From: Azoarcus sp.
GTDB taxonomy: Bacteria > Pseudomonadota > Gammaproteobacteria > Burkholderiales > Rhodocyclaceae
Length of the DNA stretch: 54,858 nucleotides
Reading direction: 5' to 3'
Assembly: GCA_031268195.1 (NCBI GenBank)
Contig: JAIRXQ010000022.1
Coordinates: forward strand, 1-54,858
The stretch's first letter is position 1. Every line of letters starts with the position of its first letter. The position numbers and the translations under genes were made by a program. Under the pieces are notes generated by a model. The model saw only the letters and a program-made list of their open reading frames with translations, was not told the origin of the DNA and did no database searches. Below are positions 6,465-54,858 of the stretch, one piece after another.

Positions 6465-6627
6465 ACCCACAGGCGGAGAGCGGGTTTGCGGACGCTCCGC
6501 AGTGGCCTGGGCAACGGTGGGGCGATAAGGCGGGGAAGGACGAATGCTTCAATCGCACGCAGGAAAACAGACGCCGCGAGGCTTGAAAACGCACGGTGAA
6601 AATCCCGGCGGGCAGGCGCGGATCGAA

Positions 6628-7383: not shown

Positions 7384-7395
7384 GCGGACGGCGGT

Positions 7396-8208
7396 TCAGC
7401 GCAACCCGAGCACGTCCTGCATGTCGAACAGGCCCGGTGCACCGCGGGCGGCGAGGAAACGCACCGCCCGCAACGCGCCGAGCGCATACGGCATGCGGCT
7501 GCCGGCTTTGTGGGTGATTTCGATGCACTCTCCAATGCCCGCGAACAGCACGGTATGCTCACCCACGATATCGCCGCCGCGAATGGCGTGAAATGCGATG
7601 CTCTGGCTGTCGCGCTCGCCAGTGACACCTTCGCGCCCGTAGATCGCGCATTGTTTGAGGTCGCGCCCAAGCGCCTGCGCGAGCACTTCGCCCATGCGCA
7701 GCGCAGTGCCGGAAGGCGCATCGACCTTGAAGCGGTGATGCGCCTCGATGACTTCCACATCGTAGCCTTCGGAGAGAATGCGCGCCGCCACATCGAGCAG
7801 GCGGAACACGGCATTGACGCCCACCGCCATGTTGGGCGCGAAAACGATGGGAACGACGCGCGCCGCCTCGGCAATTTCGGCCTTGCTCGCGGCATCGAAC
7901 CCGGTGGTGCCGATCACGGCGGCTTTGCCCAATCGCACCACATGCGCCAGATGCGCGATCGTGCCTTCGGGCCGTGTAAAGTCGATGAGGCAATCGGCGG
8001 CGGCGATGGCAGCGGCGGCGTCACTCGTGATCGTGACGCCGGTGACCACACCCGCGGCCGCTCCCGCGTCGCGCCCGATGACGGGCGAACCGGGCCGGTC
8101 GAACGCCGCCGCGAGGCGCACCCCCTCGCCGGCATGCGCCGCTTCGATCAACATTTCGCCCATGCGCCCGGACGCACCGGCGACCGCCACCCGAATCGGA
8201 GTCGTCAT
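7396..8208 (-). CDS. dapB: 4-hydroxy-tetrahydrodipicolinate reductase
   Basis: 270 residues from the ATG at 8208. The frame is open further upstream but runs through bamE sequence. DapB reduces hydroxytetrahydrodipicolinate with NAD(P)H on the way to diaminopimelate and lysine. The N-terminal Rossmann motif is VAGASGRMG (about 9-17), with GTTGF at 100-104. The catalytic/substrate-binding segment [16 protein letters not shown] has His157, His158 and Lys161 plus the PSGTA loop. The gene sits 25 bases downstream of bamE on the same strand and 12 bases upstream of the InaA-like gene, so the three may be cotranscribed. Confidence 0.97.
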
Positions 8209-8233
8209 GATTGCCTGTCCCGAAAAAACGAAG

Positions 8234-8656
8234 TTAGTCTTTGACCTTCGGCACTTCGATGACGCGGGGCAGGTTCTGTGTCGCCGCCTCCCCCTTGAGC
8301 TCGCCCATGTCGCCTTCGATACGCTCGAACAGGCCGTCAATGAAAAAAACCGAAATCGTGCGCTGCTGCACATCGCCATGACCGGACTTGAAGCGATAGA
8401 TGTAATCCCAACGGTCGGTACGGAACACATCGACCACGAGCGGCGAGCCGAGCACGAAGCGCACCTGATCGCGCGTCATGCCGGGTTTGAGTTGCGCCAG
8501 CATGATCTGATTGACGAAATTGCCCTGCCGCACATCGATGCGGTAAGGCGCGAAAAACGAGCACGCGGACAGCAAAACGGCGGTGACGACAGTGACGGCG
8601 GCCGCGCGCATGGGTGCGGAGAAGCGAATGGGCGCGGAGAAAAACGGGAAATGCAT
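8234..8656 (-). CDS. bamE: Outer-membrane assembly lipoprotein BamE (SmpA/OmlA)
   Basis: 140 residues. A hydrophobic lipoprotein signal ends in the lipobox LLSAC with Cys32 as the lipidated residue. The mature part has the BamE core: [19 protein letters not shown], then QVRFVLGSP and a WDYIYRF strand. BamE belongs to the beta-barrel assembly machine in the outer membrane. The start at 8656 is one choice; an internal ATG at residue 16 would still leave a complete signal peptide, and neither has a strong ribosome-binding site. It is transcribed divergently from fur across about 80 bases, an arrangement common in Beta- and Gammaproteobacteria. Confidence 0.92.
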
Positions 8657-8737
8657 GGGAAAGAGCCTTTGCCGGTTCTCAGTGAAGGTCGAAGAATATA
8701 ACATAGCACCACTAACAGCACGGCCACCGATTCGACC

Positions 8738-9229
8738 ATGGCAGATAACTCCCTCAGTCTCAAAAGCATTGGCCTCAAAGCCACCCATCCTCGCCTCAAG
8801 ATCCTCGAACTGTTCCAGACCACCGAACAGCAGCATCTTGCCGCCGAGGACGTCTATCGCCTGTTGATCGAAGAAGACATGGACATCGGCTTGGCGACCG
8901 TCTATCGCGTACTCACGCAGTTCGAGCAGGCGGGCCTGCTGGAGCGCCACTTTTTCGAGAACGGCAAGGCGGTGTTCGAACTGAACAAGGGTGAGCACCA
9001 CGACCATCTGGTGTGCCTGCAATGCGGCCGCGTCGAGGAGTTCTACGACGCCGAAATCGAACGCCGCCAGAACGCCATCGCCAAGAAGCGCGGCTTCGCC
9101 ATCAAAGATCACGCGCTCTATCTTTACGCCGATTGCCTGCGCAAGAACTGTCCGCACCGAAATAGCCATCAGCGCGATTTGATACACGCCTCCGCGGCGG
9201 GCGTGTCCTACGACGACGAACCCGCTTGA
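8738..9229 (+). CDS. fur: Ferric uptake regulator Fur
   Basis: 163 residues, the typical Fur length. The winged-helix DNA-binding domain (about 1-83) contains the recognition helix segment [15 protein letters not shown] near residue 52. The metal-binding region follows with GEHHDHLVC at 85-93, a CxxC at Cys93/Cys96 and a second pair at Cys133/Cys138. With Fe(II) it represses iron-uptake genes. The bamE-fur intergenic region contains a TATAAC hexamer near 8697-8702 that may be the fur -10. I did not find a convincing Fur box there. Confidence 0.96.
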
Positions 9230-9310
9230 GCGCTTCCGGTTCCAGCGCCTGCCCATCATTCCTGGAAAGCGGCGCACCCCGTTTGCGCGTCCGACGACCG
9301 TCCCAATAGG

Positions 9311-9377
9311 TTCGGCGTGCGAGTGGAGCCCGGCGTGCGAGGGGGGCTCGGCATGCGCAGGGAGCTCGGCGCGCGAA
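9311..9377. repeat. Degenerate 18-bp tandem repeat between fur and recN
   Basis: Three consecutive 18-base units at 9324-9341, 9342-9359 and 9360-9377 share the pattern gggagctcggcgtgcgag with a few substitutions each. A partial unit (ttcggcgtgcgag) precedes them at 9311-9323. They lie in the roughly 200-base gap between the convergent genes fur and recN, which otherwise shows no open gene. Function unknown; possibly slippage-generated low-complexity DNA. Confidence 0.6.
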
Positions 9378-9432
9378 TGCGCGGGCGGCCCTCCCCGGTT
9401 GCATCAAGGATCAGCGCGGGATCGATGCGGAA

Positions 9433-11094
9433 TCAGCTCGCCCGCCACTTCAGCATCTCCGCCGCGTGCTTGCGTGTCGTCTCGGTGATATTCAGCCCGC
9501 CCAGCATACGGGCGATCTCCTCGATACGGGCGGCTTCGTCCAGCGGCGCGACGGTGCTCAGGGTTTGGCCAGCGTGGGTTTCCTTGGCAATCTGCCATTG
9601 CCAGTCGGCGCAGGCGGCGACTTGTGGCAGATGGGTCACGCACAGCACTTGCCGGTCTTTGCCAAGGCGATGCAGCAATTGACCGACGATTTCCGCAACC
9701 CGGCCGCCGATGCCGACGTCGACTTCGTCAAAGATCAGCGTGGGCGTGGCGGAATCACGGCTGGTCATCACCTGAATGGCGAGGCCGATGCGGGAGAGTT
9801 CGCCGCCGGAGGCGACTTTGGCGAGGCCGCGCAGCACCTGTCCCTGATTGGCGGCGACCCGGAATTCGACCGCTTCGTTGCCGTGCGCGGACGGCTCGCC
9901 GGGCATCAGGGCCGCCTCGAATCGGCCTCCTGCCATCGCCAGCGATTGCATGGCTTCGGTGATGTCGGCGGAGAGCGCCGCCGCCGCCGCGCGACGAGCC
10001 TCCGTAAGGCGCACGGCAGCGGTGGCATAGGCTTCCCGCGCCGTGTGTTCGGCGGCAGCGAGGCCCACGGGGTCAGCGCTCGCTTCGAGCGCATCGAGCC
10101 GCGTGCGCCAGTCGACGGCGAGCGCGGGCAAATCTTCCGGCGCAACGTGGTGTTTGCGCGCCATGTCCATCACGGCGGCAATGCGGCGTTCGATCTCGGC
10201 CAAGCGTTGCGGGTCGAGGTCGAGCCGGTCGCGGTAGCGGCGCAGGGCGTGGACGGCCTCGTCGGTCTGGATCGCCGCCGCGTCGATGAGTTCGCACACC
10301 TCGGCAAGCGCCGGGTCGATAGCCGCCATCGCTGCCAAGCGGTTGGCGCAATGGCCAAGAACGGCGCGCACCGCCTGCTCGCCTTCGCCAAGACTGTCGA
10401 GCATCTCCTCCGTGCCGCTCACCAGATCGGCGGCATGCGCCAGTCGTCCGTGTTCGGTTTCGATCTCGCGCCACTCGCCAGCCTCGAACGCGAGCTCGTC
10501 CAGCTCCCCGAGCTGCCAGCCGAGCAGTTCGCGTTCGCGCGCCGAAGCCGCCGTGTCGCGTTCCGCTGCTTGTCGCAGTGCGAGCAGGCGTTGCCATTCG
10601 CGCCAGTGCGCGGCCACTTCCGCCGCAAGGCCACCCGCGCCCGCATGGGTGTCGAGCAGCGCGCGTTGCGTTTCGGCGCGCAGCAGGGCGTGATGGGCGT
10701 GCTGGCCGTGAATGTCGGCCAGCCATTGCCCCATCGTGCGCAATTGCGCCTGCGTGACCGGCGTGCCGTTGATCCACGCCTTGCCGCGCCCGCTGGCATC
10801 GACCACGCGGCGCAGGATGAGCGCGCCCTCGTCGGCATCCAATTCCTGTTCGGAGAGCCACGCGGCCAGCGCTTCGCCCGACGGCAGATCGAATTCGGCC
10901 ACGATGTCGGCCTTATCGCACCCCATGCGCACCACGCTGGCCTCGGCGCGCTCGCCCAGCGCAAGGCTCAGGGCATCGAGCATGATCGACTTGCCCGCGC
11001 CAGTCTCGCCGGTGAGCGCGCCGAATCCGGCACTGAAATCGAGTTCGAGCCGCTCGACGATGACGAAATCGCGGATGGAAAGACGCCGAAGCAT
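9433..11094 (-). CDS. recN: DNA repair protein RecN
   Basis: 553 residues, the normal size for this SMC-like ATPase of recombinational double-strand-break repair. The N-terminus has the Walker A motif GETGAGKS at 29-36 following the typical start MLRRLSIRDFVIVE. A long alpha-helical coiled-coil centre (about 150-360) separates it from the C-terminal ATPase half, where the signature region KVASGGELSRIGLAIQ and Walker B LIFDEVDVGIGG are intact. It is cotranscribed with nadK, 16 bases upstream; the nadK-recN pair is conserved. The reading frame is uninterrupted. Confidence 0.97.
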   Translation of the reverse strand: MLRRLSIRDFVIVERLELDFSAGFGALTGETGAGKSIMLDALSLALGERAEASVVRMGCDKADIVAEFDLPSGEALAAWLSEQELDADEGALILRRVVDASGRGKAWINGTPVTQAQLRTMGQWLADIHGQHAHHALLRAETQRALLDTHAGAGGLAAEVAAHWREWQRLLALRQAAERDTAASARERELLGWQLGELDELAFEAGEWREIETEHGRLAHAADLVSGTEEMLDSLGEGEQAVRAVLGHCANRLAAMAAIDPALAEVCELIDAAAIQTDEAVHALRRYRDRLDLDPQRLAEIERRIAAVMDMARKHHVAPEDLPALAVDWRTRLDALEASADPVGLAAAEHTAREAYATAAVRLTEARRAAAAALSADITEAMQSLAMAGGRFEAALMPGEPSAHGNEAVEFRVAANQGQVLRGLAKVASGGELSRIGLAIQVMTSRDSATPTLIFDEVDVGIGGRVAEIVGQLLHRLGKDRQVLCVTHLPQVAACADWQWQIAKETHAGQTLSTVAPLDEAARIEEIARMLGGLNITETTRKHAAEMLKWRAS

Positions 11095-11110
11095 GATGGT
11101 CGCGGGGCGA

Positions 11111-11998
11111 TCAGGAGCGCGGCATACCGGCGCTCCAATGGAGTTTTTCGCGCAGCATGGCGAAATAGCTGTGCCCTTCCGGGTGCAGCAGCCGCACTTC
11201 CATGGGCGAGCGCACGATGCATAAAGTGTCGCCCGCGCTCACGTCGCAGAAAGCCACACCATCGAAGTGGATACGCGCATCGTGTGGCGGCTTGAGCACG
11301 ATTTCGATGCGCGCGCTGTCGGGCAATGTCACCGGGCGCGCGGTGAGCGCGTGCGGACACAGCGGCACGAGCGCGATGCCGCCGACGCCCGGATGCAGGA
11401 TGGGGCCGTTGGCCGCCATCGCGTAGGCAGTGGAGCCGGTGGGCGTCGCGACGATCATGCCGTCGGAGCGCAGGGAGTAGACGAATTCGCCATCGACCAG
11501 CAACTCGAATTCGATCATGCGGCCAAGACTGCCGCGATTGACCACCACATCGTTCAGGGCCAGCGTCTGAAAAATGCGCTCGCCGCCGCGAGCCACTTCA
11601 GCGTGAAGCATGAACCGCGACTCGGCCCGGTAGTGCCCATCGAGAATCTCGCCCAACTGACGGCGCGCATGGACGCGCGACAAATCGGTGAGAAAACCGA
11701 GACGGCCCAGATTGATTCCGACCAACGGCACGGAGCGTTCCGCCAGCATGCGCGCGGCGTTGAGCAAGGTGCCATCGCCGCCGACCACCACGGCGAGCTC
11801 GGCCTTGTCCGCGATTTCCCCATAAGTGACGGTCGTGAAGTCGTCCGCCACCTTGCCTATCGCGGCGGCAGTGCCTTGTTCGATCCACGGATCGATTCCG
11901 CGCGCGCGCAGATAACGCGCCAAGTCAAGCACCGTTTCGGTACCGTCCGCGCTCTGGAATTTGCCGATCAGGGAGATTTTGTCGAGTTTTCGCGCCAT
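11111..11998 (-). CDS. nadK: NAD kinase
   Basis: 295 residues, normal for the bacterial enzyme that phosphorylates NAD to NADP in the cytosol. Signature motifs are present: [11 protein letters not shown] at 73-83 (catalytic GGDGT), [11 protein letters not shown], and the second domain motif [16 protein letters not shown]. It is transcribed divergently from hrcA, with about 77 bases between start codons, and runs into recN. No anomalies. Confidence 0.97.
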
Positions 11999-45354: not shown

Positions 45355-46572
45355 CTACAGGAATTCAGGTGACGTCTTTTCCAGGTAACGCGCCGCTGCG
45401 GCGGAATGGCCGTTTTTCAGAAATTCCTTGCCGATCATCGTCAGGAAATCACGCCTTTCCGGTGCCAATGCCAGCGCATGCGCAATCAGGGCCTCGGCCT
45501 GTTCTATTTGGGAAATGCGCACGCAAACGAGCGCCATATGAACATAAATGATGGGATTGTCCGGTTCGAACCTCACGACCTGGTTCAGATAATAGATGGC
45601 TGTTTCGTTTTCCCCGCGATTGAATGCCTGAATGGCAAGCAAAAGCGTCATCCTTATCACCAGGCGAGGGAATTCATGCGACGGCAGTGGCGCACTGCCG
45701 GCCAAAGCGATTTCCTGTGCGGCAGTCTGTGTCTTGCGGATGAAATGCGGCAGTTGTGACTGAAAAAAATGATGATTTCCAGCCCGGATCGTATCCAGGA
45801 TTTTCGGGAGATGTAGACGCGCCTGTTCGATTTCCTCCGGCGTGTCGGAAAAAGTATAGCCTTTGCCAGGATATACCGCGAGATGGGCGGCAGTGTGTCC
45901 TAACTGCCTGTACTGCGGATGTTCCAGAATGAGCACCGGGCAGCCGCACAACATCGCCAGGACATTGGTGCCGGAAAACTCGTAGGTGTAGAGGACGGAA
46001 GCACCCTGCAATATTTCGGCGAGCTTTGGCAAAGGCACAGGCCGTTGGTTGGAAAGTATTTCAATATCCAGCGGTAATGCAGAGAAATCGATAGCTGCTT
46101 CCGGAATCCGGTTGATGTAAAGAAAAGGCTTCAGATGGGTACGCCGTGGATCGGGCTTGAACAAATCGAGATCATATAGCGGTGGGGAGAGGAAATCGAA
46201 CTCTCCTTGCGGTTCGGGCGTGCATGCCCTGCTATAGTAAAAAAACAAATCGCCATCTTCAGCGTTGACTTTGCTGCCGGTTATCAAGCCTTCCTTATTG
46301 AGCAGGTAATGCACACAAACAGGGGTGCGCAGCAGGTTTTCACCGATGGTTTCCGGATAGACGCCGATGGCCGCGCGTCCGTCCGTTTCGTGCTGCCGGC
46401 ACAGGTCGAGGGTCAGTTTGGGCGTGGCGAGTTTTGGGTCGACTTTGTCCGCGAAAAAAATCCAGGCTTCCTGACCCGCCGTGTTCAGGGCATGGCAGAG
46501 GTGGTGCAGGGCCACTTTGCCTTCGGAACTGGAAGTGTAGCCGGGGGCGAAAATGTAGTAGGGGTGGTTCAC
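45355..46572 (-). CDS. Glycosyltransferase-like protein with C-terminal TPR repeats
   Basis: 405 residues from a GTG start. The N-terminal part (about 1-270) looks like a GT-B-type glycosyltransferase: YYIFAPGYTSSSEGKVALHHLCHALN resembles the acceptor-side opening of GT4 enzymes. Between residues about 180 and 240, LAEILQGASVLYTYEFSGTNVLAMLCGCPVLILEH has the donor-side pattern of an acidic residue, a small-residue loop and a hydrophobic strand. Residues about 305-405 form two to three TPR-like helix pairs (NRGENETAIYYLNQVVRFEPDNP). GT-TPR proteins often glycosylate proteins such as flagellins. Last gene of the cluster, lower in GC than the housekeeping genes beside it. Substrate unknown. Confidence 0.65.
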   Translation of the reverse strand: MNHPYYIFAPGYTSSSEGKVALHHLCHALNTAGQEAWIFFADKVDPKLATPKLTLDLCRQHETDGRAAIGVYPETIGENLLRTPVCVHYLLNKEGLITGSKVNAEDGDLFFYYSRACTPEPQGEFDFLSPPLYDLDLFKPDPRRTHLKPFLYINRIPEAAIDFSALPLDIEILSNQRPVPLPKLAEILQGASVLYTYEFSGTNVLAMLCGCPVLILEHPQYRQLGHTAAHLAVYPGKGYTFSDTPEEIEQARLHLPKILDTIRAGNHHFFQSQLPHFIRKTQTAAQEIALAGSAPLPSHEFPRLVIRMTLLLAIQAFNRGENETAIYYLNQVVRFEPDNPIIYVHMALVCVRISQIEQAEALIAHALALAPERRDFLTMIGKEFLKNGHSAAAARYLEKTSPEFL

Positions 46573-46624
46573 GTCATGATTCCGCAGGTGGCGACACGGT
46601 CAGACAAAGTATTGTTTCATGACA

Positions 46625-46798
46625 TTATCTTCCGTTCAGATGCTGCATGTACCACCGGCCAAAGTGCGCCAGACACTGCTCACTGTCGCCCAGTACGCCA
46701 ACCGTGGGTGCAGTGTATCGACCGGAGAGCTTTTCCCGCTCCAGGTCGAACCAATGTCGTTCGGTGTAGCAGGCGGGCGGCAGGGTGGGGTGGGGCAT
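46625..46798 (-). pseudogene. 57-codon remnant of a second Rieske oxygenase (N- and C-terminus fused)
   Basis: Read on the minus strand, residues 1-28 (MPHPTLPPACYTERHWFDLE and following) match the first 28 residues of the intact Rieske oxygenase at 48720-49913. Residues about 30-55 (TVGVLGDSEQCLAHFGRWYM plus QHLN) match its last 27. About 340 residues, including the Rieske centre and the catalytic iron site, are absent, yet the frame is open to TAA. It begins two bases after the fkbM-like stop in the same TGACCATG context seen at the intact gene, so it is a decayed paralogue in the operon. After the stop, ATGAAACAATACTTTGTC then TGA may be the beginning of a second deleted downstream gene. 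Confidence 0.85.
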
Positions 46799-46800
46799 GG

Positions 46801-48012
46801 TCAGTAAAAATACAGGCAGGTATCAAAGCGGTCTTCCCCTTGGTGGCGTAAACCGATTCGATAGTCGTCGCACAAGGCGCCAACATAATCCGTCAGCGTG
46901 AGTATGTCCTCTGCGCGGTGGTAAGCGGATGCGCAGATTTTCGGACGATACCTGGAAATGAGTCCGCATCCCCCTTTCAGCGCGTCGAGTTCCGCGCCTT
47001 CGATATCCAATTTAATGAGCGTGGGCGCGCCATCGATGAGTTTGTCAAGTGTCCTGACCGGCACCAGACTGTCCGGGTCGGTTTTTTCGGTGCAGGCCAG
47101 TAAATGCCCATCGTAGCCTCCAAGGTGTGCGAAGGGCAATGAACATTCTTCTTTTCCAAGCGCACATGCATGTAGCTGGATGCGGCCCGGAAGGGTTTTG
47201 TGAAGATTGGAAATAAATTTATTCAGCGTTTCAACATTCAAACGATCCGGCTCGATCATCCAGATTTTTTTGAAATTGCCACCCGTCAAATCGACCAGGG
47301 CGGTCGTCGATTCTCCGCTGGATGCGCCGCAGTCGACGAAACTCTCGTTGCGGCCAGGACTCCACAAGCCGCTGCGGAAGTATAGGGTAGAGTAAGGGCG
47401 TGCCACATGTAGATGCCATTCTTTGTTGCAGGTTAGATGAAACAGCAGGACACAAAGCAGGGTATCCCGGGAATAGCCGTCAACAAGTTTGTCCAGAAGG
47501 TTGAAGTAAGCATCAGCATGGGATGCGATGTGCTGGCCCCAGTCGGCACTCCTGTGGTCTCTACAGCGAATGCCGGACAGGCGCACGGCCTGTTCAAAGT
47601 TGAGCACGTTGATGCTGTTGTATCTGCACAGTTCCTCAAAATAACGACGAGAATAGTCAAAACGACATCCGTTGATGGCGAGCAGGGATTTGTCTCCCGC
47701 ACGCTTGGAAAACTCCCGTGATGTGATGATCGGCAGACCACAGAACTGGAACCCCTTGCCGTGGCGGAAGTCGTCCACTACGGCTGAAATCTTGAATGCT
47801 TCACCCAGTTCCAGTGCGACGGCTTGGGAATAGTTGGTCGTACCGAGAAGGATAACCTCTCCACTCCCTCGTGCGAACCATTCCCGTACAGCAGGAGACA
47901 ACGCAAATGCAGGGTCTGCCCGAAAAGCCGTTAGTGCATTGTGGAAGTGGACTTTCAGATCAGCATTTTCCATGCTTATGATCTGGATTGTTTCTTGGAG
48001 GGAAGGTTTCAT
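46801..48012 (-). CDS. FkbM-family methyltransferase
   Basis: 403 residues. The C-terminal 200 residues are an FkbM-type SAM methyltransferase: FVDCGASSGESTTALVD (motif I), IEPDRLNVETLNKFI, and TLIKLDIEGAELDALKGG followed by RPKICASAYHRAEDI. The N-terminal 180 residues resemble a Rossmann-like sugar-modifying domain (GEVILLGTTNYSQAVALELGEAF, then FCGLPIITSREF), so it may be a two-domain tailoring enzyme. FkbM enzymes O-methylate sugars or polyketides. In this cluster a sugar O-methyl group is the likely product. GC is lower than in the upstream cluster genes. Confidence 0.82.
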   Translation of the reverse strand: MKPSLQETIQIISMENADLKVHFHNALTAFRADPAFALSPAVREWFARGSGEVILLGTTNYSQAVALELGEAFKISAVVDDFRHGKGFQFCGLPIITSREFSKRAGDKSLLAINGCRFDYSRRYFEELCRYNSINVLNFEQAVRLSGIRCRDHRSADWGQHIASHADAYFNLLDKLVDGYSRDTLLCVLLFHLTCNKEWHLHVARPYSTLYFRSGLWSPGRNESFVDCGASSGESTTALVDLTGGNFKKIWMIEPDRLNVETLNKFISNLHKTLPGRIQLHACALGKEECSLPFAHLGGYDGHLLACTEKTDPDSLVPVRTLDKLIDGAPTLIKLDIEGAELDALKGGCGLISRYRPKICASAYHRAEDILTLTDYVGALCDDYRIGLRHQGEDRFDTCLYFY

Positions 48013-48100
48013 GATTTTCTTCTCGCAGCATATTGAGACGAGTTTAGGAAAACTTCGGCAGGCGGGAGAATTGTTATCTGGAGCACAGCGGAAGTTTCCA

Positions 48101-48727
48101 TCAGGAGGTCAGTACGCGGACCGGATTTTCAAACATCGGTGAATAGAAAGTGCAGTCCGGTATTTGTCCCATGTATTGCCGCGCCAGATTGAGGTAACAA
48201 TGCGCGCCGACCGTGGTCGAGCGCAGGAGGCTGGCATTGGCGCAGACCGTGGCGAAGTCACCGACGTTTGCCAGTTCCCGGATGGAAACGTTCGCTTCCA
48301 GCGTGACGTAAGCGCCGACCGTGACCTCTTCGCCGACGAAGACGTTGGGGCGCAATACGGCATGATGCCCGATGACGCTTCCCGCGCCGACGAATACGCC
48401 AGCATGAATGTGGACGTTTTCGCCAATTTTCGCGCCCGGATCGACGCTGGCCCTGGGCGAAATCAGGGAAACGCTCCGGTATCCCCGCCTGGCGGTCGCT
48501 TCGTGGAATGCGCGGCGCACGTCATTGATGTAAAACTCATTGACCGCGATGGAAATTTCCCATTCGGCAGGCGGAAAGGCGTCCAGGCTGGAGAGGTCGA
48601 ACAGATAGTAGTCCGTCACGGGAACCAGAAGCCGTTCGATACGGCGTTGCGGGAAAGCCTCTTGCGCGAGCGCGAAGGCGCTGTTGACGGAAATGTCGGG
48701 CCCGGTGACCAGTAAAGGTTTACTCAT
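48101..48727 (-). CDS. Hexapeptide-repeat (LbH) acyltransferase
   Basis: 208 residues. The N-terminal 85 residues form a PglD-like alpha/beta domain. From about 90 to 190 isoleucine-patch hexapeptides run: SPRASVDPGAKIGENVHIHAGVFVGAGSVIGHHAVLRPNVFVGEEV in successive six-residue turns (positions about 90-135), then TVGAYVTLEANV. The VIGHH histidine is a candidate catalytic base. Such enzymes O- or N-acylate sugar nucleotides with acyl-CoA or acyl-ACP. The start overlaps the Rieske oxygenase stop by eight bases (ATGAGTAA), indicating coupling. The acyl donor may be the product of the ACP/KAS III/SDR genes upstream. Confidence 0.83.
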   Translation of the reverse strand: MSKPLLVTGPDISVNSAFALAQEAFPQRRIERLLVPVTDYYLFDLSSLDAFPPAEWEISIAVNEFYINDVRRAFHEATARRGYRSVSLISPRASVDPGAKIGENVHIHAGVFVGAGSVIGHHAVLRPNVFVGEEVTVGAYVTLEANVSIRELANVGDFATVCANASLLRSTTVGAHCYLNLARQYMGQIPDCTFYSPMFENPVRVLTS

Positions 48728-49913
48728 GGCATTCCCCTTCGTTCAAATGTTGCATGTACCATCGGCCAAAGTTCGCCAAACAGTATTCGTTGTCGCCAAA
48801 TATGCCAACCGTGGATGCACTGGACAAGGTTTTTTGTACCTGCTCGAACACGACGACGTCTTCGTCTACCACTCGTTTTTCCGCATGATGGATGCCCCAC
48901 AGCAAATGTGGTATGGACGATGTTCCTTCTTTTAGCCTGGCCGTGAAAACCCATGAATGATATTCCGTGCGATCCGGTGCGAGCGGGACGAATTGCTGCA
49001 AGAAGAAATGCTCGCCGTGGATGGAACCGAAGTTGACGTTGGGAAAAACTGGACAAGCGAAAAAACTCCCTCGATCCAGGGAGTTTTCCAGTAACGCCGA
49101 AAACCAGCGGGAAGCATAGTGCAGGGGAATCCGCCGGATTGTGCTGATGTCGCGGGTCGCGACAGACCCACCGTTGGAGGGGTTGGTGGGCTTCGGCTCC
49201 AGGAAATGGATATCGGCAAGTGGCGAGCCCGGAGAAAAAATCAAACTGCCTTCCTCTGGCGGTACCGCGAAGCTGCCATCCTCACGTGTTCCCAAGGCCG
49301 GTGCGAGAGTGTATTTATGTACAACCGGGATGTGTGATATCTCGTCTTCGGAAATATTCTCGAAATTGAGTTTCCAGTTGTAGTTTCCGGTGAAGGTCGT
49401 GCAGGAGACTTCCGGCGCGAAATGTGTTGAAACCACGGTCAGCAGGTACAGCAGGTCTTTCGGAAATTGTTCCGCTATCGGCAAGGGCTTTTCGGCGAGA
49501 TTGACGAAGACGAAATTGCCGACCGTCTCCAGCGCGTAGGGGTGCAGATCCATGCAGGCTTTGTCCGCGCCGGACAAGCCGTAGAACTTTTCGCCGGGAA
49601 TGCCGCGCAGCTTGCCGTCGTGCCCGAAGCTCCAGCCGTGATAGGGACAGAGCAACTTGCGGTTGCCGCAAGGTTCGATCTGGATGGGGCAGGCGCGGTG
49701 GGGACAGGCGTTGCGGAAGGCGCGCAATGTGCCGCCGCAGTTCTGGATCAGCACGGGAATGCCCGCCAGCGTGCGGGTGATGAAGCTGTTGTCGGCGCGA
49801 AGCTGTTGCGTCAGACCGGCCAGCAGCCAGTATCGGTTAAACAGTTTTTCACGCTCCAGATCGAACCAGTATTGCTGGGTGTAACAGGCAGGCGGCAGGG
49901 CGGGCTGAATCAT
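48720..49913 (-). CDS. Rieske non-haem iron oxygenase, ring-hydroxylating alpha-subunit family
   Basis: 397 residues from the ATG at 49913 with AAGGAGG upstream. The [2Fe-2S] Rieske ligands are Cys70-x-His72 and Cys89-x2-His92 (CPHRAC and CPYHGWS). The catalytic domain has NWKLNFEN starting at 179 and the ExxHxxxxH iron motif Glu191-His194-His199. The carboxylate ligand should lie in the C-terminal part, where NVNFGSIHGEHFFLQQF fits the usual strand. No ferredoxin or reductase gene is adjacent. Members hydroxylate or demethylate aromatics, amines, choline-like or other small molecules. Its location within a sugar/acyl cluster suggests oxidation of a sugar or acyl group. Substrate unknown. Confidence 0.9.
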   Translation of the reverse strand: MIQPALPPACYTQQYWFDLEREKLFNRYWLLAGLTQQLRADNSFITRTLAGIPVLIQNCGGTLRAFRNACPHRACPIQIEPCGNRKLLCPYHGWSFGHDGKLRGIPGEKFYGLSGADKACMDLHPYALETVGNFVFVNLAEKPLPIAEQFPKDLLYLLTVVSTHFAPEVSCTTFTGNYNWKLNFENISEDEISHIPVVHKYTLAPALGTREDGSFAVPPEEGSLIFSPGSPLADIHFLEPKPTNPSNGGSVATRDISTIRRIPLHYASRWFSALLENSLDRGSFFACPVFPNVNFGSIHGEHFFLQQFVPLAPDRTEYHSWVFTARLKEGTSSIPHLLWGIHHAEKRVVDEDVVVFEQVQKTLSSASTVGIFGDNEYCLANFGRWYMQHLNEGECHE

Positions 49914-49938
49914 GGTCAAACCTCCTTGGCATGGCACG

Positions 49939-50592
49939 TTATGGCGTATTGATGCTGATGACGCGGGCGGGGTTGCCGAAGACAGTGGCGTTGGGGGGCA
50001 CATCCTTGACGACGACCGAGCCGATGCCGATCGTGGCGCCGTCGCCGACATGTATGTTTTTGGCGATGACGGCGCGCGGGTGGATGGCGACACCGTTGCC
50101 GATCCTGACGCCTCCGGCAAGAAAGCTCATGGCGCCGATCATGCAATGTTCGCCGATTTCGACGTCATGGCCGACGATGACGCCCGTGTCGAGGTAGGCG
50201 AACGCGCCGATGCGGCAATCGGTGGAGACGACGCAGCCGGGCGTGAGAAAGCTGCCTTGTCCGACGTGTGTGCGGGAGGCGATCGAGACGGCGCTGGTAT
50301 AGCTGAAAAACCGCGCGCCCCGCGCCGCAAGCGGCGCGATGAGCCTGTTGCGCCAGTGGGGATTGCCCACGGCGGGAATGTAGCGGTCTTCCGGGTTGGG
50401 TTGCCAGGTCAGCGGATTGCCCAGAACGGGAACATCCAGTTCGGGCGGCAAGACCAAGTCGGCGCGGGTGTCGAGAAAGCCGCCGAGCCGGAATTGCCCG
50501 AAGAGGGCGGCATCGCGCGCAAGCACGTCATAGACGATGCGCCCCAGGCCGCCCGCGCCGATGATGATGAGTTTTAGGGGCGTGGCGCGCAT
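49939..50592 (-). CDS. PglD/NeuD/VioB-like sugar acyltransferase
   Basis: 217 residues from the ATG at 50592. The N-terminal Rossmann-like domain begins LKLIIIGAGGLGRIVYDVL and binds the nucleotide sugar in PglD. The left-handed beta-helix follows from about 105, with the catalytic-histidine motif VIVGHDVEIGEH (His142) and AIHPRAVIAKNIHVGDGATIGIGSVV. The family N-acylates UDP- or dTDP-amino sugars (bacillosamine, viosamine, sialic acid O-acetylation). It lies four bases after the SDR gene and 25 before the oxygenase. With a sugar aminotransferase at the operon head, N-acylation of a 4- or 3-amino sugar is the likely job. Confidence 0.88.
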   Translation of the reverse strand: MRATPLKLIIIGAGGLGRIVYDVLARDAALFGQFRLGGFLDTRADLVLPPELDVPVLGNPLTWQPNPEDRYIPAVGNPHWRNRLIAPLAARGARFFSYTSAVSIASRTHVGQGSFLTPGCVVSTDCRIGAFAYLDTGVIVGHDVEIGEHCMIGAMSFLAGGVRIGNGVAIHPRAVIAKNIHVGDGATIGIGSVVVKDVPPNATVFGNPARVISINTP

Positions 50593-50596
50593 GGGT

Positions 50597-51352
50597 TCAG
50601 CGGGTTGCCGTGTAACCGCCGTCGAGGACGAGGGTCGTGCCGGTGATCCAGCGGCTCGCGTCCGAGAGGAAGAAAATCGCCGCGCATGCCACGTCTTCGG
50701 GATGGCCGGGCCCCAGCGGGTAACGTGCCAGGGTGTCTTCCAGTCCGCCCACGGTCTGGCGGGCCGCTTCGAGCATGGGGGATTCGACCATGCCAGGGGC
50801 AAGGCAATTGGCGCGGATCTTCTTTCTGGCAACTTCCGTGGCGAGGCAGCGGGCCACGGCTTCCAACGCGGCCTTGCTGGCGGAGTAGGCGGCAACGCCC
50901 GCCACGCCGATGTGCGCCGAAATGGAGGAGACGAATACGATGGCCCCGCCGGACTGGATGGCGTTGGCGAGCAGCAATTGCCGGGTCAGGCGCATCGGGG
51001 CGACGGTATTGACGGCAAGCTGCTCGTCGATGTGTTGATTCGTGGCCATGCGCAGCGGTGCGAGCAGGGAAATCCCCGCGCAATGGACGAGCCCATGGAG
51101 CTTGCCCGCCTGTTTGGCGAGCGCCTCGATCTGGCCGCTGTCGCCGAGATCGCAGGCGAGGGAGCGATGCGCGCCGGGCGGGAGTTCATCGATCAGGCTG
51201 GCCAGCCGCGCTTCATTGCGGCCGCTGGCGACGATGTCGGCGCCCGCCTGGGCGCAGTGCAGCGCGATCTGGCGTCCGATGCCGGAGGATGCGCCTGTCA
51301 CCAGCACGGTTTTTCCGGCGAGGCTGAAGGGGTTGAAAGGGGTGTCGCTCAT
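50597..51352 (-). CDS. Short-chain dehydrogenase/reductase, 3-oxoacyl-ACP reductase type
   Basis: 251 residues from the ATG at 51352, overlapping the KAS III stop as ATGA. Classical SDR: cofactor motif TGASSGIG at 19-26, NAG-equivalent HCAG near 90, catalytic Ser142/143, Tyr156 and Lys160 (YSASK), and the C-terminal ITGTTLVLDGGY. Directly following an acyl carrier protein and a ketoacyl synthase, it is most simply a FabG-like ketoreductase giving a 3-hydroxyacyl-ACP. A nucleotide-sugar reductase is the alternative. Confidence 0.9.
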   Translation of the reverse strand: MSDTPFNPFSLAGKTVLVTGASSGIGRQIALHCAQAGADIVASGRNEARLASLIDELPPGAHRSLACDLGDSGQIEALAKQAGKLHGLVHCAGISLLAPLRMATNQHIDEQLAVNTVAPMRLTRQLLLANAIQSGGAIVFVSSISAHIGVAGVAAYSASKAALEAVARCLATEVARKKIRANCLAPGMVESPMLEAARQTVGGLEDTLARYPLGPGHPEDVACAAIFFLSDASRWITGTTLVLDGGYTATR

Positions 51353-52389
51353 GATTCGATCAGGTCCGGAAAGAGCGCGCCTTCGATCTCCAGCAGGCAG
51401 CTTCCCCATGACAGGCCGACGCCGAAACCGGAAAGCAGCAACCGTTTTTTACCTTGTTCGAGTTCGGCGCGAATCCGCGCGGTCATGGTCAGGGGCAGGG
51501 AGGCGCTGCTGGTATTGCCGAAATCGCGCAGGGTGGAAGGGACTTTTTCCGCCGGCAGGCCGAGTTTCTTGCGGATCGTTTCGTTGATCATGTGGTTGGC
51601 CTGATGGAAAACGTAATAGTCGACGTCCTCCTTGGCGGTCTCCGCGTATTCGAGCAGCCTCTTTATCGCCGGCGGCACGCGCTGCGTCGAAAAACTGAGT
51701 ACCGTCAGGCCGTCGAGCCGCAGCTCGCCGGGCCAATGCCAGTGGTCGTTTTCATTTTCTCGCCGGGGGATCATGTGTTGGAGGCCGAACGGTTCCCGGT
51801 GTCCGCCGATCGGCAGGCAAATGGCTTTGTAACCGCTGCCGTCGCTGTTGAGATCGCAGTGGATCGGCGGCGCGGCGGGGTCGAATTCCAGCGCGGTGGC
51901 GGTGCCGGCGTCGGAAAAAATCGGGTCGTTATAACTGGCGCAACGGTCACCGACCAGCAGCAGCCCTTTTTTGACGCCTCCCGCCGCGATCATGCTGCCG
52001 AGAAGGTTGATACCGAACGGGTAGCCCGAACAGCCGAGGTTGACATCGAAGGCGGCGGTTGCCTGCGAAAGGCCAAGGCGATCTTGCAGGATGATGGCGG
52101 TGGCCGGAATCAGGTAATCGGGCGACTGGGTGACGACGACCAGGGCGTCGACTTCCTCGCGCCGCCAGGCAAGCTTTTCCAGCAGGGTCTCGGCGGCGGC
52201 GAAGGCGAGATCGGAAAAACACTGCCATTCGGGACAGAGCCGCCGCTGCTCGATGCCGATGTTGCGCACCAGGCGTTCGCGTTCGCCCCGGATTTGCGGA
52301 CGGCAGTCCGTGAGATTGGAGACGATCTGCCGGGGAACACAGCTCGCCATCCCCGCAAAGCGAACCTTGTGCAATGTGGATGACGGCAT
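51349..52389 (-). CDS. 3-oxoacyl-ACP synthase III family protein (KAS III/FabH-like)
   Basis: 346 residues, a complete thiolase-fold condensing enzyme with the Cys-His-Asn triad: Cys120 (NLGCSGYPFG), His262 (FHQANHMIN) and Asn292 (FGNTSSAS). It differs from housekeeping FabH in its long insertion with ENENDHWHWPGE near 211-222. FabH-type enzymes start chains by joining acyl-CoA to malonyl-ACP. With the neighbouring ACP and reductase, it could make acetoacetyl-ACP and then 3-hydroxybutyryl-ACP as a sugar acyl donor. Related genes occur in flagellin-glycosylation and O-antigen loci. Product length is inferred. Confidence 0.9.
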   Translation of the reverse strand: MPSSTLHKVRFAGMASCVPRQIVSNLTDCRPQIRGERERLVRNIGIEQRRLCPEWQCFSDLAFAAAETLLEKLAWRREEVDALVVVTQSPDYLIPATAIILQDRLGLSQATAAFDVNLGCSGYPFGINLLGSMIAAGGVKKGLLLVGDRCASYNDPIFSDAGTATALEFDPAAPPIHCDLNSDGSGYKAICLPIGGHREPFGLQHMIPRRENENDHWHWPGELRLDGLTVLSFSTQRVPPAIKRLLEYAETAKEDVDYYVFHQANHMINETIRKKLGLPAEKVPSTLRDFGNTSSASLPLTMTARIRAELEQGKKRLLLSGFGVGLSWGSCLLEIEGALFPDLIES

Positions 52390-52393
52390 GATT

Positions 52394-52621
52394 TCAGTCG
52401 TCCAGCAAACGGAAGAGATCGCCGACGGTGGCGGCGGAGTTCAATTGCATGCCGGCGATGCTTTTGCCGTATTCGGTATCGAACATGACGATGACGCCCA
52501 ACATGGCGAGAGAATCCCACTGCGGCAGGTTTTTGAGTTCGGTATCCGCATCGACTTCCATCGGATCGGTGAAATCGCAGGCGGCGAGAAAGTCCGCAAT
52601 GAACTTGTCAATACTGTTCAT
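52394..52621 (-). CDS. Acyl carrier protein
   Basis: 75 residues from the ATG at 52621, overlapping the aminotransferase 3' end by 14 bases. Acidic four-helix ACP with the phosphopantetheine site Ser37 in WDSLAML. It is shorter and less FAS-like than AcpP (which has DSLDTVELVM), so it is a dedicated carrier for the cluster. It probably carries the acyl chain built by KAS III and the SDR and hands it to one of the two hexapeptide acyltransferases. Confidence 0.88.
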   Translation of the reverse strand: MNSIDKFIADFLAACDFTDPMEVDADTELKNLPQWDSLAMLGVIVMFDTEYGKSIAGMQLNSAATVGDLFRLLDD

Positions 52622-53840
52622 GGAGAAGCGTTTCCTTCGTGCGGAAGGGCTGGGGCGGCGGGATCGGCACGCGGTTTTCCGGCGATCCGCCCAAGTGAGC
52701 GCGCGCGGGGGCGCGGACGTGCGGGTTGCGGATAATTGCCGCAATCCGGGCGATGGTTTTTCGGTCGATGTCCGCGCCGGTCGGCAGCACCAGGATGCGG
52801 GCCGCCACCTCGATCGTGTTCGGCAAGTCCCGGTCGGCGTGCGGAAACAGGTCCCGATACGGCCGCATGGCGTGTACGCCCGGCCAGAAGTAAGGCCGGG
52901 CGAGGACGTTATGCCGATGTAATGCAGTCAGGATTTCGTCGCGGTTTGCGCGGGGGGGGGCTTTGGGGTCTTCCCGGATTTCGATGACGACGTATTGGAA
53001 ATTGCTGCGCTCGCGCGCATCGTGGGGCAGCAGCGCGACGCCCGGCACATTGCCGAGAGCATCGGCATAGTCCCGGTAATTGGCTTGGTTGACAGCGATG
53101 ACTTCATTCAGGCTTTCCAGGCTGGTCAGGCCGAAAGCCGCATGTATTTCGGACATTTTGCCGTTGATGCCGACACAGACCGCGCCGTCGGCGTTCCGAA
53201 AGCCGAAATTGCGCATCGACCGCGCGCGTTCGGCGAGATCGTCGTCGTTGGTGGCGATGGCACCGCCTTCGATGGTGCTGAAGGCTTTCGTCGCGTGAAA
53301 GCTGAATACTTCGCAAGCGCCGAAGTTGCCAATGCCGCGTCCCTTGCAGGTGTTGCCGAAGGCATGGGCGGCATCGAACATCAATTTCAGGCCGTATTCG
53401 TCCGCGATGGCTTGCAGGGCATCCACCGGCGCGGGGCGTCCCCACAGATGCACGCCGACAATGCCGGTGGTGCGCGGAGTGATCTTGCGGCGCACGGCTT
53501 GCGGGGAAAGATTGTGAGTTTCGGAGTCGATGTCGGCGAATACCGGCGTGATGCCCTGCCAGTAGAGGGCATGCGCGGTAGCGGCAAACGTCCATGAGGG
53601 AACGATGACTTCGCCGGACAAATCCAGGGCGCGGGCGGCGACTTCTAGCGCCGTGGTGCCGCTTGCCAGGGCGACGCAATGCCTGACGCCGATGTACTGC
53701 GCGATGCGCCGCTCCAGTTCGCGCACCATCTGGCCGTCATTGGTCAGCCAGCGGCTGTCGAGAATCTGTTCGACACGGCGCAAAAATGCGGCGCGATTGC
53801 CGATCCCGGGACGCCCGACATGCAGGGGATGAGAAAACAT
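52608..53840 (-). CDS. DegT/DnrJ/EryC1/StrS-family sugar aminotransferase
   Basis: 410 residues from the ATG at 53840; the frame is open to 54071, but the extra part is atypical and no clear ribosome-binding site decides the start. PLP-dependent fold-type I enzyme: ALASGTTALEVAARAL (57-72), Asp156 in LMFDAAHAFGNT contacting the pyridine nitrogen, and the Schiff-base Lys185 in FHATKAFSTIEGG. Such enzymes aminate 3- or 4-keto-6-deoxy nucleotide sugars (VioA, FdtB and PglE type). About 35 extra Pro/Arg-rich residues form the C-terminus. No rmlA/rmlB-type gene is in the window, so the keto sugar must come from elsewhere. First gene of the cluster. Confidence 0.9.
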   Translation of the reverse strand: MFSHPLHVGRPGIGNRAAFLRRVEQILDSRWLTNDGQMVRELERRIAQYIGVRHCVALASGTTALEVAARALDLSGEVIVPSWTFAATAHALYWQGITPVFADIDSETHNLSPQAVRRKITPRTTGIVGVHLWGRPAPVDALQAIADEYGLKLMFDAAHAFGNTCKGRGIGNFGACEVFSFHATKAFSTIEGGAIATNDDDLAERARSMRNFGFRNADGAVCVGINGKMSEIHAAFGLTSLESLNEVIAVNQANYRDYADALGNVPGVALLPHDARERSNFQYVVIEIREDPKAPPRANRDEILTALHRHNVLARPYFWPGVHAMRPYRDLFPHADRDLPNTIEVAARILVLPTGADIDRKTIARIAAIIRNPHVRAPARAHLGGSPENRVPIPPPQPFRTKETLLHEQY

Positions 53841-54140: not shown

Positions 54141-54344
54141 CTATTTTTTTGGTATTGATTGAGTTTTTATCCATACCTCACGCGCATGGTTCAAACTCAT
54201 TTGATTAGCACCGCCCGCATAATCCGGTTCGTTAGATTGAACAGGATCATCCTCCCAGTGACAAATTGGGCAAATTTCATACCCGCCCTGTTCTGCAAAA
54301 ACTTGATTTTTACAACAAGGGCATTCAAATAATTCATTACTCAT
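54141..54344 (-). CDS. CPCC-family cysteine-rich protein, probable immunity protein
   Basis: 67 residues. Two zinc-knuckle-like cysteine sets, CPCC at 8-11 and CPIC at 25-28 followed by HWEDD, match the cysteine-rich CPCC family (PF14206). Many of these are found directly downstream of polymorphic toxins and are regarded as immunity proteins. Its ATG overlaps the toxin stop (ATGA, 54341-54344), the usual toxin-immunity coupling. The segment is clearly lower in GC than the chromosome around it. Immunity function is inferred from family and context. Confidence 0.82.
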   Translation of the reverse strand: MSNELFECPCCKNQVFAEQGGYEICPICHWEDDPVQSNEPDYAGGANQMSLNHAREVWIKTQSIPKK

Positions 54345-54858
54345 TGTTTATTCCAATAATTTATCCCATCCACCGGACGGAACATGGTTCTAGGTGCGCC
54401 CAATGAATTTTTAATAGCGAAAGTATTGCTGGCAGGGTCGTAAAGCAAAACATCGCCATTCGGCCTAGTTTTTGTCAACACATTCGCAGACGGATTGCTA
54501 ACAAAATTTTGCGCACTCTCAACGTATTGAGATGCGTTGCTAAACTCTGGAAACTCCCCTCCATGCTTAGACCAATGAGCCCCTGCGTTTTCTGGGGCGG
54601 TCAGCGTCTTTGTGGCCGACCAATCACCAACCAAAGCATTACCTTTTGAGTCAACAATAATAGTTTTACCTGGATTGGCGGTATTGACCGCCGCTTCACC
54701 TGCGGGGGTGAAGGTGGGTTCGCCTGTTGCTTGCTGAAGCCAGATGTATTTGCCCAGGAAGGTGGACAGATCGCGCTGGAGGGCGGCATCGTCGTGAATG
54801 CCCGGATTCGAGTAGCGCTGGTTGATTGTGTTGCCCAGCCAGCGCATGTCGTCGTAGC
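54341..54858 (-). CDS. C-terminal part of a polymorphic toxin (partial at window edge)
   Basis: The frame is open to the window end (it reads YDD before the first ATG at 54847), so this is the last 172 or so residues of a larger protein, likely of the hemagglutinin/CdiA or Rhs type. The C-terminal 80 residues have AHWSKHGGEFPEFSNASQY, then VLTKTRPNGDVLLYD and a closing NTFAIKNSLGAPRTMFRP. These resemble BECR-fold ribonuclease toxin tips (His-Lys near the start; Thr and aromatic residues at the end). The preceding part, DNA-encoding PAGEAAVNTANPGKTIIVD, looks like a pre-toxin linker. RNase activity is inferred. The adjacent CPCC gene supports a toxin-immunity pair. Confidence 0.72.
   Translation of the reverse strand, partial: YDDMRWLGNTINQRYSNPGIHDDAALQRDLSTFLGKYIWLQQATGEPTFTPAGEAAVNTANPGKTIIVDSKGNALVGDWSATKTLTAPENAGAHWSKHGGEFPEFSNASQYVESAQNFVSNPSANVLTKTRPNGDVLLYDPASNTFAIKNSLGAPRTMFRPVDGINYWNKQ

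What the first reader, a model, noticed from the sequence alone, without database searches (positions are those of the whole stretch)
45355..53840. Compact cluster coupling a sugar aminotransferase to a private ACP/KAS III/ketoreductase set and a Rieske oxygenase
Seen: ten minus-strand frames, several overlapping by 4-14 bases, with intact catalytic residues in the aminotransferase (Lys185), ACP (Ser37), KAS III (Cys120/His262/Asn292), SDR (Tyr156/Lys160), PglD-like enzyme (His142) and Rieske oxygenase (Cys70/His72/Cys89/His92, His194/His199). Known: ACP, KAS III and ketoreductase genes occur beside sugar aminotransferases in some flagellin-glycosylation and O-antigen loci, where 3-hydroxybutyryl amino sugars are made. 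Inferred: this cluster builds an acyl-ACP, transfers it to an amino sugar and tailors it by oxygenation and O-methylation. I do not recall a described pathway that places a Rieske oxygenase between two hexapeptide acyltransferases in such a set. The oxygenase could act on the sugar or on the acyl chain.
Basis: partly seen in the sequence, partly recalled or inferred. Interest (0 to 1): 0.85.

Follow-up and report, generated by a model that had tools for sequence, protein, structure and literature searches.

The report
Xanthomonas-type flagellin sugar island with Rieske
An unnamed bacterium carries a nine-gene operon, matching a gene set known from the flagellar regions of Xanthomonas, that probably makes an unusual acylated amino sugar for flagella or another cell-surface glycan; the one really unexplained step is what its Rieske oxygenase does.

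Summary
In detail: nine intact minus-strand genes plus one gene remnant lie at 45355-53840, with the stated catalytic residues. The tenth frame is a remnant of a second Rieske gene. The claimed novelty is not right. The same run (aminotransferase, ACP, KAS III, one or two SDRs, VioB-type acyltransferase, Rieske, second hexapeptide protein, FkbM) occurs in Xanthomonas and Pseudoxanthomonas next to rpoN and fleQ. It is tabulated in PMC3826837 and is probably the gigX flagellin-glycosylation island of X. oryzae. Of 12 order-level genomes with this KAS III (own included), 11 have a related Rieske gene in the same 20-kb stretch, 10 in the same run. The 22 cassette Rieske proteins form one clade apart from 45 others. 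Best reading: a probably horizontally acquired GigX/viosamine-type island making a nucleotide-linked 4-amino-4,6-dideoxyhexose, N-acylated from a private ACP, then oxygenated and otherwise tailored. Flagellin is the likeliest acceptor, but here the island is not beside the flagellar genes, and some genomes without flagellin carry relatives of it. I found no statement in the held papers of what the Rieske enzyme does. That step is the open question, testable by gene removal plus mass spectrometry.

The parts
52608..53840 (-). DegT/DnrJ sugar aminotransferase (410 aa), DesI/VioA-like: probably makes dTDP-4-amino-4,6-dideoxyglucose
   Evidence: PF01041 361.7 bits; TIGR04427 461.3 bits, under its 650 cut-off; nearest solved chain 2po3, E 1.1e-108; Lys185
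52394..52621 (-). private acyl carrier protein (75 aa), Ser37 in WDSL
   Evidence: motif; 47-63% identical to ACPs at the same place in the 11 canonical loci; no curated cut-off passed
51349..52389 (-). KAS III-like synthase (346 aa), Cys120/His262/Asn292
   Evidence: PF08541 and PF08545 over cut-off; below the FabH cut-offs; 65-77% identical to KAS III of the 11 canonical loci
50597..51352 (-). SDR ketoreductase (251 aa), Tyr156/Lys160
   Evidence: PF13561 180.7 bits; residues
49939..50592 (-). VioB/PglD/NeuD-type sugar N-acyltransferase (217 aa), His142
   Evidence: TIGR03570 176.2 bits, over 160.8; nearest solved chain VioB 7txp
48720..49913 (-). Rieske non-haem iron oxygenase alpha subunit (397 aa), member of the cassette-associated clade; two-residue insertion at the bridging acid
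   Evidence: PF00355 and PF00848; tree; ligands kept in 22 of 22; fold matches Stc2 and CntA among the best
48101..48727 (-). second left-handed beta-helix (hexapeptide) acyltransferase-like protein (208 aa)
   Evidence: PF00132 56.4 bits; TIGR03570 75.7 bits, under cut-off; such a gene follows Rieske in 13 of 15 sub-clade-2 rows; lacks a His that 6 of the 10 aligned proteins have
46801..48012 (-). FkbM-type methyltransferase (403 aa)
   Evidence: PF05050 51.1 bits, TIGR01444 60.5 bits, both over cut-off
46625..46798 (-). remnant of a second Rieske gene (57-aa frame; about 339 codons of the middle lost)
45355..46572 (-). glycosyltransferase-like protein with C-terminal TPRs (405 aa, GTG start)
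   Evidence: no GT family passes; weak GT-B fold matches; its nearest relative among 80 genomes (48%, G708) lies one gene from fliC and fliD

Best explanation
This is a (probably horizontally acquired) glycan-biosynthesis operon of the Xanthomonas GigX / Pseudomonas viosamine kind. Proposed order of work: (1) the DegT enzyme aminates dTDP-4-keto-6-deoxyglucose (inferred; the genome has RmlB); (2) KAS III plus SDR on the private ACP make a short 3-hydroxyacyl-ACP, by analogy 3-hydroxybutyryl (inferred from VioS/VioR); (3) the VioB-type protein moves it to the 4-amino group (inferred from the family); (4) the Rieske enzyme, probably alpha-only and monooxygenase-like, oxygenates the product, most likely an aliphatic C-H of the acyl group or sugar, creating a hydroxyl; (5) FkbM and perhaps the second hexapeptide protein cap hydroxyls by methylation and acylation; (6) the sugar is attached to a cell-surface acceptor, most likely flagellin, whose genes in this genome sit beside a GT41-family glycosyltransferase gene. 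Shown here: gene content, catalytic residues, recurrent synteny, a single Rieske clade, flagellar neighbourhoods in some relatives. All chemistry is inferred.
For: Same run in 6 of 6 Xanthomonadaceae loci found, each beside rpoN and fleQ, and in L031, L138-L141. KAS III survey: 12 of 300 order genomes, own included; a Rieske gene in the same stretch in 11 of 12. The 22 cassette Rieske rows form one clade, 100/99, ligands kept 22 of 22. Of the 10 other order genomes with this KAS III and a flagellin match, 3 have the KAS III gene 3.6-6.6 kb from a flagellin gene. Own genome: two flagellins, fliD and a GT41 gene together on contig C56; RmlB. The last gene's best relative lies one gene from fliC. 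PMC3826837 Table 5 scores exactly ten of the 14 genes XCV2000-XCV2013 in X. oryzae PXO99A, matching the ten-gene gigX island reported to determine flagellin glycosylation (read only as cited in PMC6859632 and PMC8657755); PMC4875605 cites an acetyltransferase of that flagellar region as required for it (passage). Remnant versus intact Rieske: dN/dS 0.16 over 54 codons, so both copies were probably under constraint before the loss.
Against: The window's island is not beside flagellar genes: it sits between surE and the contig end. Three genomes with more distant KAS III relatives (37-41%) have no flagellin match (G682, G137, G074), and Flavobacterium has a variant (L040), so such cassettes also serve other glycans. 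In 7 of 10 order genomes the flagellin is on another contig or, in G669, over 450 kb away. The aminotransferase is below the DesI cut-off and 26-42% identical to those of the Xanthomonadaceae loci, L031 and L141 (best 59%, in L143, on the other strand). The Rieske is 32-37% identical to those of the canonical loci (KAS III there: 65-77%) and has an insertion at the bridging acid. The second hexapeptide protein lacks a His that 6 of 10 aligned proteins have. No reductase gene was sought. By sequence the best solved Rieske matches are ring-hydroxylating types. The GT call is weak. One Chthoniobacter locus has Rieske-LbH2-FkbM with no KAS III or ACP found in the stretch held (L041).
Confidence: 0.66

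Rival explanations
1. The same enzymes build an acylated amino sugar of an O-antigen, capsule or exopolysaccharide, not of flagellin.
For: In F. psychrophilum, wfpC-G (two KAS, ACP, reductase, PglD homologue) are predicted to make the 3,5-dihydroxyhexanoyl group on Qui2NAc4N of the O-antigen and transfer it (PMC6519341, passages). Related cassettes occur in genomes without a flagellin match and in Flavobacterium sp. Root901 (L040). The window's island is away from the flagellar genes.
Against: 6 of 6 Xanthomonadaceae loci found lie beside rpoN and fleQ, three order genomes have it near a flagellin gene, and the window's GT-like protein has its nearest relative one gene from fliC. Among the frames between surE and the contig end I saw no polymerase, flippase or exporter candidate, but no search for one was made and the contig ends 1 kb beyond the aminotransferase.
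Confidence: 0.3
2. The Rieske enzyme acts on the acyl group while ACP-bound or sugar-bound, adding a hydroxyl to a short 3-hydroxyacyl chain.
For: In one sub-clade the Rieske gene lies directly beside a KAS III or SDR gene in 5 of 7 rows (L040, L122, L143, two in L144), with no neighbouring second hexapeptide gene or FkbM found by BLAST. Flavobacterium L040 has wfp-like activities plus a Rieske gene between SDR and the second KAS III. Among the nearest folds are enzymes of aliphatic C-H (Stc2, CntA; chemistry recalled).
Against: L041 has Rieske-LbH2-FkbM without KAS III or ACP found in the stretch held. In sub-clade 2, which holds the window, LbH2 follows Rieske in 13 of 15 rows, which fits a sugar hydroxyl equally well. 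Gene order is not chemistry. The sub-clade split is weakly supported (83/82 and 82/77).
Confidence: 0.45
3. The Rieske enzyme works on the sugar ring, or removes an N- or O-methyl group as Stc2-type demethylases do.
For: The top fold hits are a quaternary-ammonium demethylase, with CntA among the next; best NCBIfam score is GbcA, far below its cut-off. FkbM is next to Rieske in L137 and L142.
Against: Sub-clade-1 loci with no FkbM found have no obvious methyl donor for demethylation.
Confidence: 0.35
4. The island is decaying in this lineage and makes no complete product.
For: A second Rieske gene is reduced to 57 codons. In sister genome G001 a 95%-identical KAS III piece follows what looks by eye like an aminotransferase tail, with no ACP between and a shifted start. 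The intact Rieske has an unusual insertion, and the second hexapeptide protein lacks a common His. KAS III is in 2 of 21 genus genomes.
Against: All nine remaining frames are open and the stated catalytic residues are there; dN/dS 0.16 between the two Rieske copies.
Confidence: 0.13

Closest known systems
GigX flagellin-glycosylation island of Xanthomonas (XCV2013-XCV2005 and XCV2000; probably gigX1-10 of X. oryzae)
   Same: Same activities in the same order, including Rieske between two hexapeptide genes, and FkbM
   Different: Window has one SDR, not two; a DesI-like aminotransferase 37-42% identical to theirs; a Rieske 34-37% identical; no BLAST match to the window's last gene in those loci; it lies beside surE, not fleQ
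Viosamine island of P. syringae pv. tabaci (vioA, vioM, vioT, vioS, vioB, vioR, acp)
   Same: Aminotransferase, KAS III, ketoreductase, ACP, sugar acyltransferase, methyltransferase (PMC3927599, passages)
   Different: No Rieske and no second hexapeptide gene among its seven listed ORFs; methyltransferase 241 aa versus a 403-aa FkbM protein. Its sequences were not compared here
F. psychrophilum O-antigen R1-group genes wfpC-G
   Same: KAS, ACP, reductase and PglD homologue predicted to make and transfer a hydroxyacyl group to an amino sugar (PMC6519341, passages)
   Different: Two KAS genes; the word Rieske or oxygenase does not occur in the main text (supplements not read); the product is O-antigen
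Stc2 / CntA / GbcA Rieske monooxygenases
   Same: Fold and ligands
   Different: Act on quaternary amines (recalled); window is far below the GbcA cut-off (89.9 versus 670 bits). They were not rows in the tree, so their place relative to the cassette clade was not tested

Membership tests
Rieske non-haem iron oxygenase, alpha subunit | [2Fe-2S] ligands CxH...CxxH and mononuclear-iron His, His, Asp | tested here: met
   C70 H72 C89 H92 H194 H199 D352, kept in 22 of 22 cassette rows
Rieske non-haem iron oxygenase, alpha subunit | Rieske and catalytic domains over curated cut-offs | tested here: met
   PF00355 55.9 (20.3), PF00848 56.0 (24.9)
Rieske non-haem iron oxygenase, alpha subunit | bridging Asp/Glu in normal spacing before the first His | tested here: inconclusive
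   Acid residues are present, but of 22 rows only the window has a two-residue insertion there
Rieske non-haem iron oxygenase, alpha subunit | electron-transfer partner (reductase) | not tested
   None among the cassette genes; the rest of the genome was not searched for one
GigX-type flagellin-glycosylation island | aminotransferase-ACP-KAS III-SDR-acyltransferase-Rieske-hexapeptide in this order | tested here: met
GigX-type flagellin-glycosylation island | location inside the flagellar gene cluster | tested here: not met
   Window lies between surE and the contig end; flagellins are on contig C56
GigX-type flagellin-glycosylation island | mutants change flagellin glycan | not testable with these tools
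   Reported for Xoo gigX, seen only as cited
DesI/VioA aminotransferase | TIGR04427 cut-off | tested here: not met
   461.3 versus 650 bits; best of its kind, works-like only
NeuD/PglB/VioB sugar acyltransferase (P0005) | TIGR03570 cut-off and catalytic His | tested here: met
   176.2 versus 160.8; His142
NeuD/PglB/VioB sugar acyltransferase (P0007) | TIGR03570 cut-off | tested here: not met
   75.7 versus 160.8
KAS III / FabH (P0003) | Cys-His-Asn triad and KAS III Pfam domains | tested here: met
KAS III / FabH (P0003) | FabH cut-off | tested here: not met
   TIGR00747 170.4 versus 292.1; NF006829 207.9 versus 249: a specialised KAS III
Acyl carrier protein (P0002) | a curated ACP model over cut-off | tested here: not met
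   No Pfam hit; NCBIfam best 17.8 versus 84 bits; carrier Ser motif and place only
Glycosyltransferase (P0009) | a GT family over cut-off or a confident GT fold | tested here: inconclusive
   No GT Pfam hit; model pLDDT 64.5, pTM 0.53; weak GT-B hits, E 2e-3 to 4e-3, behind TPR hits

The most novel reading that the evidence does not exclude
There is a distinct clade of Rieske oxygenases, spread over Pseudomonadota, Bacteroidota and perhaps Verrucomicrobiota, dedicated to surface-glycan biosynthesis. It hydroxylates the short acyl chain that a private ACP/KAS III/SDR set builds for an amino sugar, and the new hydroxyl becomes the handle for a second hexapeptide acyltransferase or the FkbM methyltransferase. 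That would be a new kind of step in flagellin and O-antigen sugar assembly.
Probability: 0.35. Interest if true: 0.65.

Novelty: new member of a known kind. Interest (0 to 1): 0.45.

Why it matters
The island ties an oxygen-dependent iron enzyme to flagellin/O-antigen sugar tailoring in at least two phyla. In the held library the Rieske gene of this set was found only as a table row, with no stated function; the gigX paper itself is not held. If the substrate is the acyl group, glycan structure would depend on oxygen and iron supply and on an acyl-tailoring step I know no assignment for, and part of the diversity of xanthomonad flagellin glycans might be read from these genes. For the window itself it is one more, diverged, member.

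Tried and rejected
Considered and dropped. A secondary-metabolite sugar cluster (the aminotransferase is closest to DesI and 2po3): no scaffold genes seen, and the synteny is with flagellar loci. Housekeeping FabH/FabG: KAS III and SDR fall below those cut-offs. Loss of the bridging acid in the window's Rieske: acids are present despite the insertion. Reading sister surE neighbourhoods as empty sites: 18 sister surE loci from 17 genomes came back and 0 of 18 had DNA similar to the window's within the 99-1500 bases held upstream, but upstream contents differ and some flanks are short, so I claim only that the island is not seen there. G010's partial Rieske (L007) matched no other cassette protein in the 2.4 kb held. 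A first dN/dS run aligned the wrong stretch and was discarded; one search replaces it. The alignment of second hexapeptide proteins failed to take a useful sequence from L139, so 10 of 11 count. Searches without use: Rieske + flagellin glycosylation + acyl carrier protein, 0 papers, one paper with no link to this set in its title or abstract start, three likewise (none of the four opened). An 80-locus Rieske scan: 6 Xanthomonadaceae loci carry the full set, the Flavobacterium and Chthoniobacter loci part of it, and 72 only Rieske or Rieske and SDR matches.

Caveats. The tree label CASSETTE includes L041 (no KAS III found) and two L146 rows (about 10 kb from KAS III). Rows from L137-L146 had to resemble cassette Rieske references at E 1e-10. 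Only the first 45 of 71 other rows were used. L147 ends at a contig edge just after SDR, so its Rieske status is unknown. The tree program warned of long branches, the window among them. Being on another contig in a fragmented assembly does not prove distance from flagellin.
Full report
What is there. At 45355-53840, on the minus strand, nine intact genes follow each other: a DegT aminotransferase, an ACP, a KAS III-like synthase, an SDR, a VioB/PglD-type acyltransferase, a Rieske oxygenase, a second hexapeptide protein, an FkbM methyltransferase and a protein with C-terminal TPRs that may be a glycosyltransferase. Overlaps of 14, 4 and 8 bases and gaps of 2-88 bases suggest one operon. Between the last two genes lies a 57-codon frame: the first 28 codons and the last part of a second Rieske gene, with about 339 codons missing. 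Over 54 comparable codons dN/dS against the intact gene is 0.16, so both copies were probably in use before the loss; the sample is small.

Is it conserved? Yes. A Rieske gene is somewhere in the stretch in 19 of 21; the exceptions are L145, which has none in the 12.4 kb read, and L147, which is cut off. With KAS III as the query, and so without choosing on Rieske, 12 of 300 genomes of the order have it at E up to 1e-60, own genome included; 11 of the 12 have a Rieske gene in the same stretch of up to 20 kb, in 10 of them in the same run and in G682 about 10 kb away. In the class survey 3 of 369 have this KAS III at E up to 1e-65: own, G137 (with Rieske), G074 (contig ends).

One Rieske clade. 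Twenty-two cassette rows form one side of a fully supported branch against 45 other Rieske oxygenases (100/99; one label change against 18.8 in shuffles). All 22 keep the metal ligands. Rows were found partly by similarity, so the clade is not an unbiased sample; rows brought in through KAS III still fall inside it. Two weakly supported sub-clades differ in neighbours. In one (15 rows) a second hexapeptide gene follows Rieske in 13. In the other (7 rows) it does so in none, and Rieske sits directly beside KAS III or SDR in 5. The window belongs to the first, on a long branch, with an insertion of two residues at the bridging acid. Its second hexapeptide protein lacks a His found in 6 of 10 aligned proteins, so its activity is uncertain.

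Known counterpart. Table 5 of PMC3826837 (section 22, part 1, and passages read) lists XCV2013 to XCV2005 as aminotransferase, ACP, 3-oxoacyl-ACP synthase, two SDRs, acetyltransferase, Rieske and two hypothetical proteins, between fleQ and fliE. The Rieske gene is scored present in 12 of 15 genomes, and exactly ten of the 14 genes XCV2000-XCV2013 are scored in X. oryzae PXO99A. A ten-gene gigX island is reported to determine flagellin glycosylation there; I saw that only as cited in PMC6859632 and PMC8657755 (passages), because the paper is not held. That gigX is this set is my inference from the count and the place. In all 6 Xanthomonadaceae loci rpoN and fleQ homologues lie upstream (L043 copies confirmed by Pfam). 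The Pseudomonas viosamine island (PMC3927599, passages) has the same core without Rieske; there vioA, vioB, vioT and vioR mutants lack the modified viosamine, and a vioM mutant has it demethylated. The F. psychrophilum O-antigen genes wfpC-G (PMC6519341, passages) are predicted to use the same logic to put 3,5-dihydroxyhexanoyl on an amino sugar.

Likely acceptor. The genome has two flagellins, with fliD and a GT41-family gene beside them, on contig C56. The window's last protein has its best relative among 80 genomes, 48% over residues 2-292, in G708, with one TPR/GT41 gene between it and a flagellin gene and fliD. Of the 10 other order genomes with this KAS III and a flagellin match, 3 have the KAS III gene 3.6 (G533), 3.9 (G457) and 6.6 kb (G698) from a flagellin gene; in the other 7 flagellin is on another contig or, in G669, over 450 kb away. 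G682, G137 and G074 have no flagellin match. So flagellin is likely but not certain, and other glycans use related cassettes.

Chemistry. RmlB is present, so dTDP-4-keto-6-deoxyglucose is probably available. The aminotransferase is closest to DesI but below that cut-off. The nearest solved structure to the acyltransferase is VioB. The Rieske model (mean pLDDT 69, residues 213-282 unreliable) matches Stc2 best, with CntA and ring-hydroxylating enzymes among the next hits; by sequence ring-hydroxylating enzymes lead and CntA is fifth. With no beta-subunit gene in the set, I favour a monooxygenase-type step that makes a hydroxyl for later tailoring. Whether on the acyl chain or the ring is not settled.

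History. Within the genus KAS III is found in 2 of 21 genomes: the window's, and G001, where a 95%-identical piece follows what looks by eye like an aminotransferase tail, without an ACP and in a shifted frame, at a contig end; an assembly fault is possible. None of 18 sister surE loci has similar DNA upstream in the stretch held. FkbM and the last gene are lower in G+C (0.52-0.54) than surE (0.65). This fits a mobile, partly eroding island, by inference.

Verdict. A real, conserved, functional-looking operon; ordinary as a kind, diverged as a member; its Rieske step is the part worth an experiment.

Noticed in passing
window 54141-54858: At the contig edge upstream of the island lie the end of an open frame without Pfam hit and a 67-aa CPCC cysteine-rich protein (PF14206) of low G+C; by look, possibly a polymorphic toxin and immunity pair.
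   Followed up: partly
L186 (G001:C143) 2909-3568: Sister genome with a KAS III piece 95% identical in DNA, preceded by an apparent aminotransferase tail, no ACP, shifted frame: a broken copy of the island at another site, or an assembly fault.
   Followed up: partly
L120 (G000:C56) about 1650-11630: Own flagellar region: two flagellins and fliD beside a TPR-GT41 gene and a large frame with methyltransferase and GT41 domains, that is, a possible flagellin-glycosylation region apart from the window's island.
   Followed up: partly
L144 4900-9800: G497 has two separate KAS III-Rieske pairs in one locus, on opposite strands.
   Followed up: no
L041 9599-13004: Chthoniobacter MAG with Rieske-hexapeptide-FkbM but no KAS III or ACP found in the 14 kb held: the tailoring part can occur without the acyl-making part nearby.
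   Followed up: partly
L145 4300-10500: G496 carries DegT-ACP-KAS III-SDR-acyltransferase and a relative (25%) of the window's last protein, without a Rieske gene: a natural comparison set.
   Followed up: no
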